From the NCBI RefSeq assembly GCF_900108095.1, contig NZ_FNWL01000003.1, positions 50,501 to 114,500 of the forward strand: a stretch of 64,000 nt of DNA, given 5' to 3'. Positions 17,818 through 22,076 of this stretch are shown one piece after another. The stretch is from Natronorubrum sediminis (GTDB lineage: Archaea; Halobacteriota; Halobacteria; Halobacteriales; Natrialbaceae). The notes beneath the pieces are model-generated. The model was given only the letters and a program-made list of their open reading frames with translations, did not search any database and was not told where the DNA came from. A program made the translations under genes and the position numbers. Each line of letters starts with the position of its first letter. Positions within the stretch are counted from its first letter, which is position 1.

Positions 17818-17838
17818 AATTTTTCAGAAAAATTTATT
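17818..17838 (+). promoter_or_regulatory. 17-bp palindrome overlapping the TATA box of the small membrane peptide gene
   Basis: AATTTTTC-A-GAAAAATT (17818-17834) is a perfect inverted repeat running into the TATA-like aatttatt (17831-17838), about 33 nt before the ATG at 17868. The position suits an operator. Confidence 0.55.
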
Positions 17839-17867
17839 CCACGCTGGGACGATGTATCTATTGCACC

Positions 17868-17993
17868 ATGACGGACCTTACCACGCACCTAAAGAATCAC
17901 CCACGAATGATTGGCGTTCTGTTCACAATATTGCTCGCCCTCTCACAGGCGGGAACCGCTGCTGCGAATATGGAATTCTACCCGGGACCGTAA
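17868..17993 (+). CDS. 41-residue membrane peptide (DUF7503-like)
   Basis: A short gene encoding MTDLTTHLKNHPRMIGVLFT followed by a hydrophobic stretch (about residues 14-33, ILLALSQAGTAAAN) and the tail MEFYPGP. It looks like a small haloarchaeal peptide family that I recall as DUF7503. The sequence could be a single membrane helix or a signal-like peptide ending at AAA. It has its own TATA box and converges on the CHAT gene with a 7-nt gap. Function is unknown; its position suggests, but does not prove, a link with the CHAT pair. Confidence 0.72.
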   Translation: MTDLTTHLKNHPRMIGVLFTILLALSQAGTAAANMEFYPGP

Positions 17994-18000
17994 CTGAGTG

Positions 18001-20085
18001 CTAGAGTCGCTCAGTTACGTCGTCACTCCAGTGTATTTCACCGTCGACCAGAAGCGGTGTCTCTTTCAATCGGAGAAAGTCCTCGAGCTGTTGGGGTGTC
18101 GCGGAGATCGATTCGATTCGTTTAGGGTGCAAGTAGTACGACTTGATAGGCTCTAAATGGGATGTAACGACACTCCCCTTTTTCGTCCCAGCGCCTTCGT
18201 AGGTTTCGAGCGAAACGGTGAGTTCGTCAGCACTGGCGGCATCGTCTATCTCGTCGTGAAACACGCACAGTGCTGGTACGCCGGTCGTTGGCTGAGCGAT
18301 CGTCGTCGTTCCGTCGCCGACGATCTGATACTGGCCCGCGACGGTGCTTTCCTTTCGTGCGAGATTGAGCGCAGCGTAGAGTGAGAATCCGTGGTTCAAG
18401 AGGTGTGCGACAACGCTGCCGACGTTGATGGCTCCGTCGTTGACGACGTCGCCACGGGTCGTAATGCCACCAATACTTCCCGATTCGATCAAGTGAATCC
18501 CCTGTTCGTGGGATTGACAGGCGTTGAGGATGAACGCCTTCGCACCGACTTGGTCGACGGTCTCCGCGCTCAGGACGCCATCTGTACACTGAAACCCATC
18601 GGCGTCGATGTGGCCGATATAGTGGAAGAAGTCACCGTTGCTCGAGAGGATCGCCTCGAGTTCTGCGACGGTGACGTCGTAGGAGACGGTCACGTCGAAG
18701 GGAAGTTCCTCGTGAGTTCCGTAGACGCCGTTTACGGTCTCGAGTTCGTCTGACATCCGCTCGTCGGTGCAGACGACGTCGATCTCGATTGGATCCGCTC
18801 CAGGTCGTCGATCGACGTTGTTGTAAAATGCCGAGAGCGGTGTCGTACTCCGGAGCGCACTCTCGCTTGCGCGCTGCCACACCTGCTGTACTGTCTTTCC
18901 CGTCGTCGGAATATTCTCACTCGAGGACTCGGTTCCACCACGTTCGTGGCGATTGTCGGTGGTTCCCGACCGAGTGAAGTCAGCAACTGCCCGTCGCTGT
19001 TGTGTCGACGTAGATCGCTGCGTGACGTCGTTATCGGTCGTCTGGACGAGTGCGAGGTCGTTCGCGATAAACGGGAGGAACGGGGCCCGATCTGGAGTTG
19101 GACGACAGTGGACCTCGAGGCGCCACTCGGGAATGTGGTCTGCGATCACCGAATGCGGGACCTCGAGGTAGCGTTCGAGTTGCACCGCCAGTGGCTCGTC
19201 GTAGAGTGCGTCGATATCGAACGGGAGATGGGATTCGACGGCCGGCCGCTCGGCGAGGGGCAGCGGGGTGATTCCCGCCGTCCGAACGATGCAATCGAGG
19301 AAGAACACGTGCTTCAACACCCGCCCGACCGTTCGTTCGAAGGATTCCCCCGTATCGAGTGGATACTCGAAGCCGCGGTCGGTAGTGAGTTGTGGGCTGG
19401 GACCGGGGACGACCGACGCGCCGAGATAGTATGCCAGTGACACCACTGGAAACAGCTGTCGGTGTGTGGGCTGTATTGCAATTTCCACGCCCGTGTCCGG
19501 TGTGTCGAGCGAGTCTGGAATCGCTACTTCGTCACCGATCTTCAGTGAGGGCGGATGTCCACGAAGGGTTGGATACGATCGATCGGCCTCGAGCGTCTTC
19601 AGTGCGGACCCGAATGCGGAGACGGCCGTCATGACGTCCGTCGGTGCTGTCGTCGTCGTGATCTGTTGTGCTGGGCGCGTGTGATACGACCGGGCACCGA
19701 CGACGACGCGCGTTTCGTCGCCAAAGGCGATGTGTGTTTGATCCGCGTCGAAGTAGACGTACGCACTCCCCGTTGCCTCGAGGTAGATTTTCAGGGAGGC
19801 GGAGAGTTCGAGTGTGTACTGTCCGGCAGGCATCGACGTCGGGTTCGGCGGTTTCGCCTCGGCGACCATCGCGCCACTCTCGTCTCGGATGTAGACGTGC
19901 TTGTTCGTCGGGAGCGTGATCGTGTTCGTCGATATCTCGACCGCTGCATCGACCGGATACTCGAGACGACCAGTGCGTACGGGTGTTGGCGACACCGTCG
20001 TCTGTGTCGTGAGCCGATAGCGATGTCGCTCGATCGGATCGATAATGACGATTCCATCGTTGGTCCGTTTGAACTTCGGTTTCAT
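18001..20085 (-). CDS. CHAT-domain (caspase-like) protease-family protein
   Basis: A 694-residue protein. Residues about 430-610 resemble a CHAT cysteine-protease domain: FFHYIGHIDADGF supplies the catalytic His (His492) and AFILNACQSHEQG the catalytic Cys (Cys523), followed by GSIGGITTRGDVVNDGA and LYAALNLAR, typical of CHAT folds. Residues 1-130 are beta-rich, the middle is mixed, a Ser/Thr-rich linker spans about 355-400, and residues 610-694 form a C-terminal beta extension. No signal peptide or membrane helix is evident, so it is probably cytosolic. CHAT proteases elsewhere act in separase-like, caspase-like and phage-defence roles. It lies 66 nt after its partner gene on the same strand. 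Confidence 0.8.
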   Translation of the reverse strand: MKPKFKRTNDGIVIIDPIERHRYRLTTQTTVSPTPVRTGRLEYPVDAAVEISTNTITLPTNKHVYIRDESGAMVAEAKPPNPTSMPAGQYTLELSASLKIYLEATGSAYVYFDADQTHIAFGDETRVVVGARSYHTRPAQQITTTTAPTDVMTAVSAFGSALKTLEADRSYPTLRGHPPSLKIGDEVAIPDSLDTPDTGVEIAIQPTHRQLFPVVSLAYYLGASVVPGPSPQLTTDRGFEYPLDTGESFERTVGRVLKHVFFLDCIVRTAGITPLPLAERPAVESHLPFDIDALYDEPLAVQLERYLEVPHSVIADHIPEWRLEVHCRPTPDRAPFLPFIANDLALVQTTDNDVTQRSTSTQQRRAVADFTRSGTTDNRHERGGTESSSENIPTTGKTVQQVWQRASESALRSTTPLSAFYNNVDRRPGADPIEIDVVCTDERMSDELETVNGVYGTHEELPFDVTVSYDVTVAELEAILSSNGDFFHYIGHIDADGFQCTDGVLSAETVDQVGAKAFILNACQSHEQGIHLIESGSIGGITTRGDVVNDGAINVGSVVAHLLNHGFSLYAALNLARKESTVAGQYQIVGDGTTTIAQPTTGVPALCVFHDEIDDAASADELTVSLETYEGAGTKKGSVVTSHLEPIKSYYLHPKRIESISATPQQLEDFLRLKETPLLVDGEIHWSDDVTERL

Positions 20086-20151
20086 GGCGAGGACGATTCG
20101 GACTGGCGTCGTGCTGGTGCACAGTAGACGACTCGGGTGGTGGTGCGGCGA

Positions 20152-20871
20152 CTACTCGCGCGAGATCCAACCGGAACTGCGGTTACCCTCGTTGATCGAC
20201 CACTGTTCTTGGAACGCTCCGTCTCGTTCGCGAAGCTCGACGACGATGTCAAACAGTGGTTCGAGAAGGGAGACGGCGTCTGCGTCGCGCTCGAGTGGGA
20301 GGTGATAGTGGATCATGCCGCTTGAGTCCTGTACTTTGCCGGTGGTCAGATGCACGAACTTGAAAACACGTTCGACGCCGTATTCCTCGAGCAGTGGCAC
20401 CAGTGAGTCGACACCGACGCGGAGGGCTGCGGGTTCGAATCCGTCGTTGCTCGCCTCGAGCGTGTCGACCGCCCTCGATATTTCGACGGCGAGGTCGGTA
20501 AGTGACGTCGTTCTCGCGGGTGTTTGCTCGAGCGCAGGCGACGAACGTTCCTCGAACGTAGACTCGTTGTTGTCGGTACTGACGCTCCGGGCGTGTGTTT
20601 CGTAGCTGATGAGTTCGAGGGGGTCGGACGACAGTTGCGCTGCGTCGAGCACGTCGGTGGTTCGGTACGGTCGGCCGAGGGTAGAGACCAGAACACGATG
20701 GCGTGACTGGGCAGCCGATTGGCCCAGGAGACGGTGACAAATATCTCGGCGGTAGTCAGTATCGACGGCACCGACGACGAGGACGCTTGCACCCGAACGT
20801 TTCAGTTGTGACAACGTTTTGGTAAACTTCCCCTCGCTGGTCGTCTCACCCCAGCTGTCTCGCGAACTCAT
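20152..20871 (-). CDS. Degenerate KaiC/RecA-like protein (DUF7504-like)
   Basis: The 239-residue product starts MSSRDSWGETTSEGKF. An N-terminal strand-loop GASVLVVGAVDTDY occupies the P-loop position but lacks GKT/S, so nucleotide hydrolysis is doubtful. The C-terminal part (MIHYHLPLERDADAVSLLEPLFDIVVELRE, in two conserved pieces) resembles haloarchaeal KaiC-like proteins I recall as DUF7504. The start was set at 20871, because the longer frame continues through the promoter. It is the first gene of the unit with the CHAT gene and is probably its regulatory or sensor partner; this is inferred from position only. Confidence 0.75.
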   Translation of the reverse strand: MSSRDSWGETTSEGKFTKTLSQLKRSGASVLVVGAVDTDYRRDICHRLLGQSAAQSRHRVLVSTLGRPYRTTDVLDAAQLSSDPLELISYETHARSVSTDNNESTFEERSSPALEQTPARTTSLTDLAVEISRAVDTLEASNDGFEPAALRVGVDSLVPLLEEYGVERVFKFVHLTTGKVQDSSGMIHYHLPLERDADAVSLLEPLFDIVVELRERDGAFQEQWSINEGNRSSGWISRE

Positions 20872-20897
20872 CGATATATTCCACACATCGGCGGGTG

Positions 20898-20912
20898 GAA
20901 CATTAAATGTTC
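20898..20912 (-). promoter_or_regulatory. 15-bp palindrome containing the TATA box of the KaiC-like/CHAT operon
   Basis: GAACATT-A-AATGTTC is a perfect inverted repeat whose centre is the only good TATA element (attTAAt on the minus strand), about 34 nt before the ATG at 20871. A protein bound here would block TBP. Confidence 0.55.
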
Positions 20913-21076: not shown

Positions 21077-21832
21077 TTACTCTCCTGTGACTCCACCGTT
21101 ATCGACGTATGCGCGGGTCGCATCGACGAGCATCTGTCGATACGTACTCGAGTCCGGATTCGCGACGAGTTCGCGAAAGCGGCGTTTGAACCCCTCGAAG
21201 TCGACGCTCGGCGCGTCCATCGCGGCGGCGTACGCGAGATCGTACAGTCGGTGGTCGTCCTCGACGAGGTCGTGACGTTCGGCCAGTGCGAGCGCGAACG
21301 CGGCGTTGACGGCCGTGATATCCGGATCTGCACTCGCAGAGCGGCGCGTGAGTCCTGACCGAGACGGCGTCTCGGGTCGGTCGGCGACGGCCATCGCGAG
21401 GCTGGACTCGAGGAACGACAGGAGTTTTTCGCCGGGACCGACGGTGAGCGTGATGTCGTCGGCGTAGATATCCTTCATGTGATTTGCGATCTGGTAGCAA
21501 TGCGAGAGCTTTCGGCGCTCGACGCTCTTGCCGGCCAACCCGAGGTAGAGAACCTCTTCTGTCGATTGAGTGTGGGAAGGGTGGGCCTGCTCGTACCTGG
21601 CCATATGGGAGAACTCGTGAAGGGCAAGTTCGCGAGCCATCGCGCTCGAGGCGGCTTGCTTCGAGATGTTCAGGACGTGTCGGTCGTCGTAGTGTCCGGC
21701 CCAGGTTCGTTCGTCTGGGTCGTCTCGGAGGTGGACGTGGACGGGCAACGAGAGATCGTGTTCCGTTTCGAAGAGGTCACGGGCCCCGAGGAACGGAGAA
21801 GTCGGCCCTGCACCCTGTACGCGGAGATCCAT
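21077..21832 (-). CDS. HEFSH putative zinc metallopeptidase (DUF5781-like)
   Basis: The 251-residue product has ARELALHEFSHMARYE, an HExxH zinc-peptidase signature (His72, Glu73, His76), preceded by a beta-rich N-terminus and followed by a mostly helical domain. It resembles a haloarchaeal family I recall as DUF5781. There is no signal peptide. The ATG at 21832 is preferred to the in-frame GTG at 21847 because the TATA-like caaaagacat at 21861-21870 predicts transcription starting near 21840. It is divergent from EF-2 and 205 nt upstream of the KaiC-like gene on the same strand. Activity is predicted, not shown. Confidence 0.75.
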   Translation of the reverse strand: MDLRVQGAGPTSPFLGARDLFETEHDLSLPVHVHLRDDPDERTWAGHYDDRHVLNISKQAASSAMARELALHEFSHMARYEQAHPSHTQSTEEVLYLGLAGKSVERRKLSHCYQIANHMKDIYADDITLTVGPGEKLLSFLESSLAMAVADRPETPSRSGLTRRSASADPDITAVNAAFALALAERHDLVEDDHRLYDLAYAAAMDAPSVDFEGFKRRFRELVANPDSSTYRQMLVDATRAYVDNGGVTGE

Positions 21833-22076
21833 GGGTATCTGTATCACGTTCTGCCGCCCTATGTCTTTTGCGCTCGTACTGTCCGATTACTGATGGGTAA
21901 GTGGTCGTTCCTCGACGTTGTATTCACGCGTTCGAATCCCGTCGTTTCGTCTTTACAGGCTGCATGTTATTCACTCACCCAGATTGGAAATTATGGCGTA
22001 ACGTGCGCGAATCCGACGGATTCGAGCGGCGACGAAACACTACCCTTTTGACCCCGCTACCGATAATAGGATGTAT

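What the first reader, a model, noticed from the sequence alone, without database searches (positions are those of the whole stretch)
17818..20912. A CHAT-protease module between rps7 and EF-2
Seen: a 694-residue protein with the CHAT His/Cys pair (GHIDADGF, NACQS), directly downstream of a degenerate KaiC-like protein on the same strand, and a 41-residue membrane-helix peptide converging on it with a 7-nt gap. Known: CHAT proteases in bacteria and archaea act as caspase- or separase-like effectors, often controlled by a sensor partner. Inferred: the KaiC-like protein is the regulator or switch and the peptide a target, toxin or membrane signal. The module interrupts a ribosomal/translation neighbourhood that is contiguous in many archaea, so its presence here is likely selected. 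I know of no described function for this set.
Basis: partly seen in the sequence, partly recalled or inferred. Interest (0 to 1): 0.75.

Follow-up and report, generated by a model that had tools for sequence, protein, structure and literature searches.

The report
Haloarchaeal CHAT protease with membrane peptide
Nearly all salt-loving archaea carry a caspase-like protease that standard annotation misses, and its gene almost always faces a gene for a tiny conserved membrane peptide, often with an inactive KaiC-like protein beside them, so this looks like an undescribed protease switch and a candidate source of the unexplained 'caspase activity' of these cells.

Summary
Window 17868-20871 holds a 41-aa peptide (Pfam DUF7503), a 694-aa CHAT-fold protease and a Walker-A-less KaiC-like protein (DUF7504). 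This is a conserved haloarchaeal module. DUF7503 occurs in 122 of 146 Halobacteriales genomes and never without the CHAT gene (both 122, CHAT only 7, neither 17). All 60 peptide regions I fetched carry the CHAT gene, and in 59 the two converge (median gap 3 nt). Starting from CHAT instead, 72 of 80 loci have the convergent peptide and about 47 have DUF7504 upstream. The AlphaFold model (pTM 0.90) matches SAVED-CHAT, separase, gingipain and caspases, and His492/Cys523 are invariant. Pfam's CHAT model misses the family, and none of 12 haloarchaea tested has a Peptidase_C14 gene. The peptide is under purifying selection and has its own promoter, a conserved [YF]Lxx[HN]P[RK]M motif, a membrane helix, a signal-peptidase-like site and a 7-10-aa tail ending Gly-Pro. 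Most likely it is the protease's dedicated membrane partner, cleaved or docked at HP[RK]; this is inferred. The rps7/EF-2 location is confined to one clade, so no translation link follows. DUF7504 is optional. I found no description of the set in the searched literature.

The parts
17868..17993 (+). DUF7503 peptide gene, 41 aa: polar N-terminus with [YF]Lxx[HN]P[RK]M-type motif, hydrophobic helix, (V/A)xA site, tail ending GP
   Evidence: (PF24335 E 8e-21)
17825..17839 (+). BRE/TATA-like promoter of the peptide gene (CAGAAAAATTTATTC), 29-43 nt before the ATG
   Evidence: AT peak and motif at the same place in 128 homologous upstream regions
18001..20085 (-). CHAT-fold cysteine protease gene, 694 aa: N-terminal beta-rich region, middle alpha/beta region, CHAT domain about 398-609, C-terminal extension
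18610..18612 (-). codon of His492 (HYIGH), invariant
   Evidence: 155 of 155
18517..18519 (-). codon of Cys523 (LNACxS), invariant
   Evidence: 154 of 154
20152..20871 (-). DUF7504 protein, 239 aa: KaiC/RecA fold without Walker A, 66 nt upstream of CHAT, same strand
   Evidence: (PF24336 E 1e-54)

Best explanation
This is a haloarchaeal protease module made of a cytosolic CHAT (caspase/separase-like) cysteine protease and a dedicated single-pass membrane peptide, DUF7503, often with a pseudo-KaiC protein, DUF7504. Shown: the genes, their near-obligate linkage, the fold, the invariant catalytic pair and the purifying selection on the peptide. Inferred: the peptide inserts N-in/C-out, and the protease recognises its conserved cytosolic juxtamembrane motif [YF]Lxx[HN]P[RK]M and probably cleaves after the Arg/Lys, as its Arg-specific structural relatives would, or else is held at the membrane there until a signal arrives. 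Cleavage or release would convert membrane or extracellular state, sensed through the helix and the Gly-Pro tail, into a proteolytic response. DUF7504, lacking the P-loop, would be a scaffold or allosteric subunit in those lineages that have it. A regulatory, largely constitutive role fits better than phage defence, because the module is near-universal, mostly chromosomal, and single-copy in Haloferax.
For: Co-occurrence in 146 genomes: both 122, CHAT only 7, peptide only 0, neither 17 (Fisher p = 5e-17; genomes are related, so the p-value is only a guide). Of the seven CHAT-only genomes, three have CHAT cut at contig ends, one is a broken gene and three carry a diverged CHAT subfamily. Linkage: 60 of 60 peptide regions carry CHAT, 59 convergent; 72 of 80 CHAT-seeded named loci have the peptide facing the CHAT 3' end; median gap 3 nt. 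Fold and catalytic pair. Peptide leader about 62% identical even between loci whose CHATs share only 35-40% identity, with Pro and Phe in 127 of 127 and Arg/Lys after the Pro in 126 of 127; pN/pS 0.19 for the leader and 0.31 for the tail. The leader conservation far exceeds what a mere signal peptide needs, so a protein partner probably reads it. Signal-peptidase (-3,-1) rule met in 129 of 130. Conserved promoter of its own.
Against: No protease activity, cleavage or interaction has been shown. The conserved Arg/Lys could serve membrane topology alone. A few intact CHATs have no recognisable peptide (tandem second copies in Natrialbaceae), so the protease can exist without it. Relatives in another family of the phylum carry a CHAT homologue with no peptide or DUF7504 beside it.
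Confidence: 0.5

Rival explanations
1. The peptide is a secreted signal: signal peptidase cuts after the (V/A)xA site and releases a 7-10-residue peptide ending Gly-Pro, which acts as a haloarchaeal pheromone; CHAT processes it or responds to it.
For: Length (38-48 aa), (-3,-1) rule in 129 of 130, nearly fixed tail length (7-10 aa in 128 of 130), variable tail core but Gly-Pro end in 104 of 127, and tail under purifying selection.
Against: The leader, disposable in a pheromone precursor, is the most conserved part. The tail drifts with CHAT divergence instead of diversifying quickly between close species. The Haloferax shape-changing quorum signal resisted proteinase K and was judged a small molecule (PMC12240190), which neither names nor excludes this peptide.
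Confidence: 0.2
2. The peptide is an inhibitor or membrane tether (pseudosubstrate, securin-like) that keeps CHAT inactive; DUF7504 or a signal releases it.
For: Strict pairing, constant leader and a separate conserved promoter suit a constitutive inhibitor; separases, which have securin inhibitors, are among the nearest folds.
Against: No genome shows the pattern expected if CHAT were dangerous without it: peptide-free intact CHATs exist. No inhibitor resemblance was tested.
Confidence: 0.15
3. The set is an abortive-infection or toxin-antitoxin module: on phage sensing, CHAT activates the peptide as a membrane toxin, in the manner of CHAT-gasdermin pairs.
For: CHAT proteases activate membrane-permeabilising gasdermins encoded next to them (PMC12881547); some copies lie on plasmids and copy number varies between genomes.
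Against: No PADLOC match, no homologue in viral contigs, near-universal presence in haloarchaea, one copy in each of 15 Haloferax genomes, and no gasdermin-sized partner.
Confidence: 0.12
4. The genes are linked only by inherited neighbourhood, and the peptide has an unrelated function.
For: Convergent genes are not co-transcribed; a same-strand displaced case exists (L221).
Against: Linkage persists across many family-level groups while the surrounding genes change, and the genes are absent together within genera that otherwise have them.
Confidence: 0.03

Closest known systems
SAVED-CHAT protease (PDB 8tl0), nearest solved fold
   Same: CHAT catalytic fold with His-Cys pair
   Different: No SAVED domain is evident, no PADLOC match, a different N-terminal half, and a membrane-peptide partner
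TPR-CHAT with gasdermin, and TPR-CHAT Csx29 (Craspase)
   Same: CHAT protease encoded beside a dedicated partner or substrate gene; Craspase structures match the fold
   Different: Partner is a 38-48-aa single-pass peptide rather than a gasdermin; no TPR region or CRISPR effector identified
Separase (5fby) and gingipain R (4ief)
   Same: Same clan-CD fold; Arg-specific relatives (specificity from general knowledge)
   Different: Short archaeal protein, no cohesin or secretion context
Pfam DUF7503 (PF24335) and DUF7504 (PF24336)
   Same: Peptide and KaiC-like proteins are members above the curated cut-off
   Different: Both families are listed as unknown function; no link to a CHAT protease was found in the papers searched
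Haloferax volcanii caspase-4-like activity (PMC3615174)
   Same: Abundant caspase-like protease activity in haloarchaea without a known gene; this is a caspase-fold protease present in all 15 Haloferax genomes tested
   Different: Whether this CHAT causes that activity is untested; CHAT relatives are often Arg-specific, whereas the activity was measured on caspase substrates
Gram-positive peptide pheromone precursors (Phr, PapR; from general knowledge)
   Same: About 40-50 aa with an export signal and a short C-terminal peptide
   Different: Here the leader is highly conserved and the neighbour is a protease, not an RRNPP receptor

Membership tests
CHAT / clan CD cysteine protease | caspase-haemoglobinase fold | tested here: met
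   AlphaFold2 pTM 0.90; Foldseek E 9.8e-8 to SAVED-CHAT, also separase, gingipain, caspases
CHAT / clan CD cysteine protease | catalytic His and Cys after adjacent core strands | tested here: met
   His492 after strand 484-490, Cys523 after strand 515-521; invariant in 155/155 and 154/154. Inter-atomic distance not measured.
CHAT / clan CD cysteine protease | match to Pfam PF12770 above the curated cut-off | tested here: not met
   Window protein no hit; 10 of 61 homologues match weakly, best E 4.5e-4; none over cut-off in 12 genomes. Read as a sensitivity gap of the model, outweighed by the fold.
CHAT / clan CD cysteine protease | proteolytic activity | not testable with these tools
   needs biochemistry
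Caspase/metacaspase (Peptidase_C14) | PF00656 match | tested here: not met
   no PF00656 match in 12 haloarchaeal genomes; the Haloferax volcanii control genome did not match either
DUF7503 (PF24335) | score over curated cut-off | tested here: met
   73.8 vs 27 bits
DUF7504 (PF24336) | score over curated cut-off | tested here: met
   186.2 vs 27 bits
KaiC ATPase | RecA/KaiC fold | tested here: met
   Foldseek best KaiC CI domain 5yz8, E 1.1e-7
KaiC ATPase | Walker A (GxxxxGK[ST]) | tested here: not met
   absent in all 29 aligned DUF7504 proteins
CHAT-gasdermin pair | gasdermin-family partner | tested here: not met
   the partner is a 41-aa peptide of DUF7503
Known anti-phage defence system | PADLOC model match | tested here: not met
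Secreted peptide pheromone | signal-peptidase site followed by short peptide | tested here: met
   sequence rule only: (-3,-1) rule in 129/130
Secreted peptide pheromone | release and density-dependent response | not testable with these tools
   needs mass spectrometry and cultures

The most novel reading that the evidence does not exclude
A near-universal haloarchaeal signalling or cell-fate system in which a caspase-fold protease, missed by Pfam's CHAT and C14 models, acts on one dedicated membrane peptide. It would be the genetic source of the long-known caspase-like activity of Haloferax, and a peptide-switched protease pathway unlike the gasdermin or CRISPR CHAT systems.
Probability: 0.25. 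Interest if true: 0.85.

Novelty: new variant of a known kind. Interest (0 to 1): 0.7.

Why it matters
Caspase-like activity in Haloferax volcanii was reported as a dominant proteolytic activity, while archaeal genomes were said to lack caspase homologues (PMC3615174). Here is a caspase-fold protease in 129 of 146 haloarchaeal genomes and in all 15 Haloferax genomes tested, one copy each, overlooked because the Pfam models do not recognise it. It comes with an almost obligatory 40-aa membrane partner. That gives a clean knock-out target in a laboratory archaeon, a specific substrate hypothesis, and a role for two Pfam families of unknown function.

Tried and rejected
Translation link from the rps7/EF-2 location: rejected as general, only 17 of 140 loci, one clade. 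Known defence system: no PADLOC match and no viral homologues. Obligatory three-gene operon: rejected, DUF7504 directly upstream in 68 of 157 CHAT entries (undercount) or about 47 of 80 loci. Rapidly diversifying pheromone tail: not supported, tail identity tracks CHAT identity. Shared operator for peptide and CHAT/DUF7504: the conserved upstream motif is a BRE/TATA-like promoter found only before the peptide. Sequence-level PDB homologue: none. DUF7504 function from unlinked paralogues: neighbours in the own genome gave no consistent hint. Haloferax shape genes RdfA/DdfA: not this module. First pass of catalytic-column counting used a wrong offset and was redone. A supposed lack of the peptide in Halomarina oriensis was a divergent copy missed by the profile. 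No paper in the held library describes the set.

Full report
Observation. The three genes are present as described. CHAT is 18001..20085 on the minus strand (694 aa); the peptide is 17868..17993 on the plus strand (41 aa), its stop 7 nt from the CHAT stop; the KaiC-like ORF is 20152..20871 on the minus strand, 66 nt upstream of CHAT. Pfam assigns the peptide to DUF7503 and the KaiC-like protein to DUF7504; the CHAT protein has no hit in Pfam, NCBIfam or PADLOC. The flanks are rps7, DUF5781 and aEF-2.

Is it a module? Yes. In the own genome DUF7503 occurs twice, each time converging on a CHAT gene, and the second copy has the same three-gene order. In 146 Halobacteriales genomes DUF7503 is found in 122 and CHAT in 129; no genome has the peptide without CHAT, and 17 have neither (Fisher p 5e-17, a guide only because genomes are related). 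Of the seven CHAT-only genomes, three have CHAT cut at contig ends, one carries a broken gene, and three carry a diverged CHAT subfamily with 'GHC' at the active-site His. I fetched 60 peptide-seeded regions from many families: all carry CHAT, and 59 have the peptide facing the CHAT 3' end. In the exception (L120/L221) the peptide lies about 1.4 kb downstream on the same strand. Seeding with CHAT instead gave 80 named loci; 72 have the convergent peptide by profile and one more (Halomarina oriensis) has a divergent one. Over both sets 134 of 157 CHAT entries, fragments and tandem paralogues included, have it; the median gap between stops is 3 nt.

DUF7504. It stands directly upstream of CHAT on the same strand in about half of the loci (68 of 157 entries by a strict rule; about 47 of 80 by reading). 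On a FastTree tree of 144 CHATs its presence needs about 15 changes. It is therefore an optional partner. It is also a larger family, with five copies in the own genome, three of them not next to a CHAT. The model (pTM 0.85) is a KaiC CI-type fold but none of 29 sequences has a Walker A motif.

The protease. The AlphaFold2 model from 61 homologues has pLDDT 89.4 and pTM 0.90. Foldseek against the PDB gives SAVED-CHAT, separase, gingipain R, the Craspase TPR-CHAT subunit and caspases; these cover about 200 residues, the size of the CHAT domain. His492 follows strand 484-490 and Cys523 follows strand 515-521. Both are invariant (155/155 and 154/154), as are His488, Gly491 and Cys500. I could not measure their distance because model coordinates are not released. 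Pfam's CHAT model does not reach its cut-off in any of 12 haloarchaeal genomes and Peptidase_C14 has no match there at all, which explains why the family has been overlooked.

The peptide. 127 anchored sequences share the pattern [YF]Lxx[HN]P[RK]MxG-xLFT, a hydrophobic stretch, LSQAG, (V/A)AA and a 7-10-residue tail; Pro and Phe are invariant, Arg/Lys follows the Pro in 126, and the tail ends Gly-Pro in 104. A signal-peptidase (-3,-1) rule is met in 129 of 130. The leader stays about 62% identical when the CHATs are only 35-40% identical, while tail identity falls with CHAT identity. In 25 independent close pairs pN/pS is 0.19 for the leader and 0.31 for the tail (uncorrected counts, pS of the tail high), so the peptide is a real, constrained protein. 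It has its own BRE/TATA-like promoter 29-43 nt before the ATG, conserved in 128 upstream regions and not found before CHAT or DUF7504.

Range. Only 4 of the sampled genomes of the phylum outside the order carry a CHAT homologue (E about 1e-70); no peptide or DUF7504 lies beside it in the three I opened. The peptide-free form may thus be older (inference). No homologue was found in viral contigs. Some copies lie on plasmids. All 15 Haloferax genomes tested have exactly one CHAT, and the Haloferax volcanii control genome carries both DUF7503 and DUF7504.

The rps7/EF-2 site. Only 17 of 140 loci lie by rps7, all but one with DUF5781; on the tree they fall in one clade. The simplest reading is that the module was placed there once and kept; no functional link to translation follows.

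Mechanism. Shown: the linkage, fold, catalytic pair and constraint. Inferred: a cytosolic protease reads the conserved cytosolic end of a membrane peptide, because leader conservation goes far beyond what an export signal needs. Cleavage after the HP[RK] basic residue is the most specific guess, based on the Arg preference of separase and gingipain R (general knowledge); tethering or pseudosubstrate inhibition would use the same contact. A secreted-tail pheromone and a cell-death toxin are live rivals. The near-universal, single-copy, non-viral pattern argues for regulation or housekeeping rather than phage defence.

Literature. The held library has no paper naming DUF7503 or DUF7504 or a CHAT domain in haloarchaea or Haloferax. 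CHAT-gasdermin pairs are described elsewhere (PMC12881547). Haloferax volcanii shows strong caspase-4-like activity with no known gene (PMC3615174); this protease is a candidate, untested. Subscription papers and preprints were not searchable, so priority cannot be excluded.

Noticed in passing
G000:C2 copy, L042:4990-5110: The second CHAT gene of this genome is split by a 34-bp tandem duplication covering the active-site His stretch (DLDFLHYVGHV), which shifts the frame; could be a recent inactivation, a phase-variable switch or an assembly error.
   Followed up: partly
L136, L137, L138, L141, L143, L144, L147, L148, L153: In Natrialbaceae-type loci a second, peptide-free CHAT gene follows the module in tandem; several are split into fragments.
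   Followed up: partly
L127:3029-3297 and L075:1501-1767: Tandem duplicate DUF7503 genes (in L127 with identical protein sequences, next to one CHAT; L075 is near a contig end).
   Followed up: no
window 21077-21847 (-): DUF5781 protein next to EF-2 carries an HEFSH (HExxH-type) motif, so it may be a metalloprotease-like protein.
   Followed up: no
L171 and L188, just 3' of CHAT: In Halococcus the peptide leader seems replaced or decayed while an ORF end reading ...SACTYSGP remains, as if the Gly-Pro tail were kept without the usual leader.
   Followed up: partly
L216, L217, L218: CHAT homologues in a non-haloarchaeal family of the same phylum (about 3 Mb genomes, possibly Methanocellaceae) without peptide or DUF7504.
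   Followed up: partly
window CHAT residues Cys500 and His488: A second invariant Cys and a second invariant His near the active site in 154-155 sequences; role unknown.
   Followed up: no
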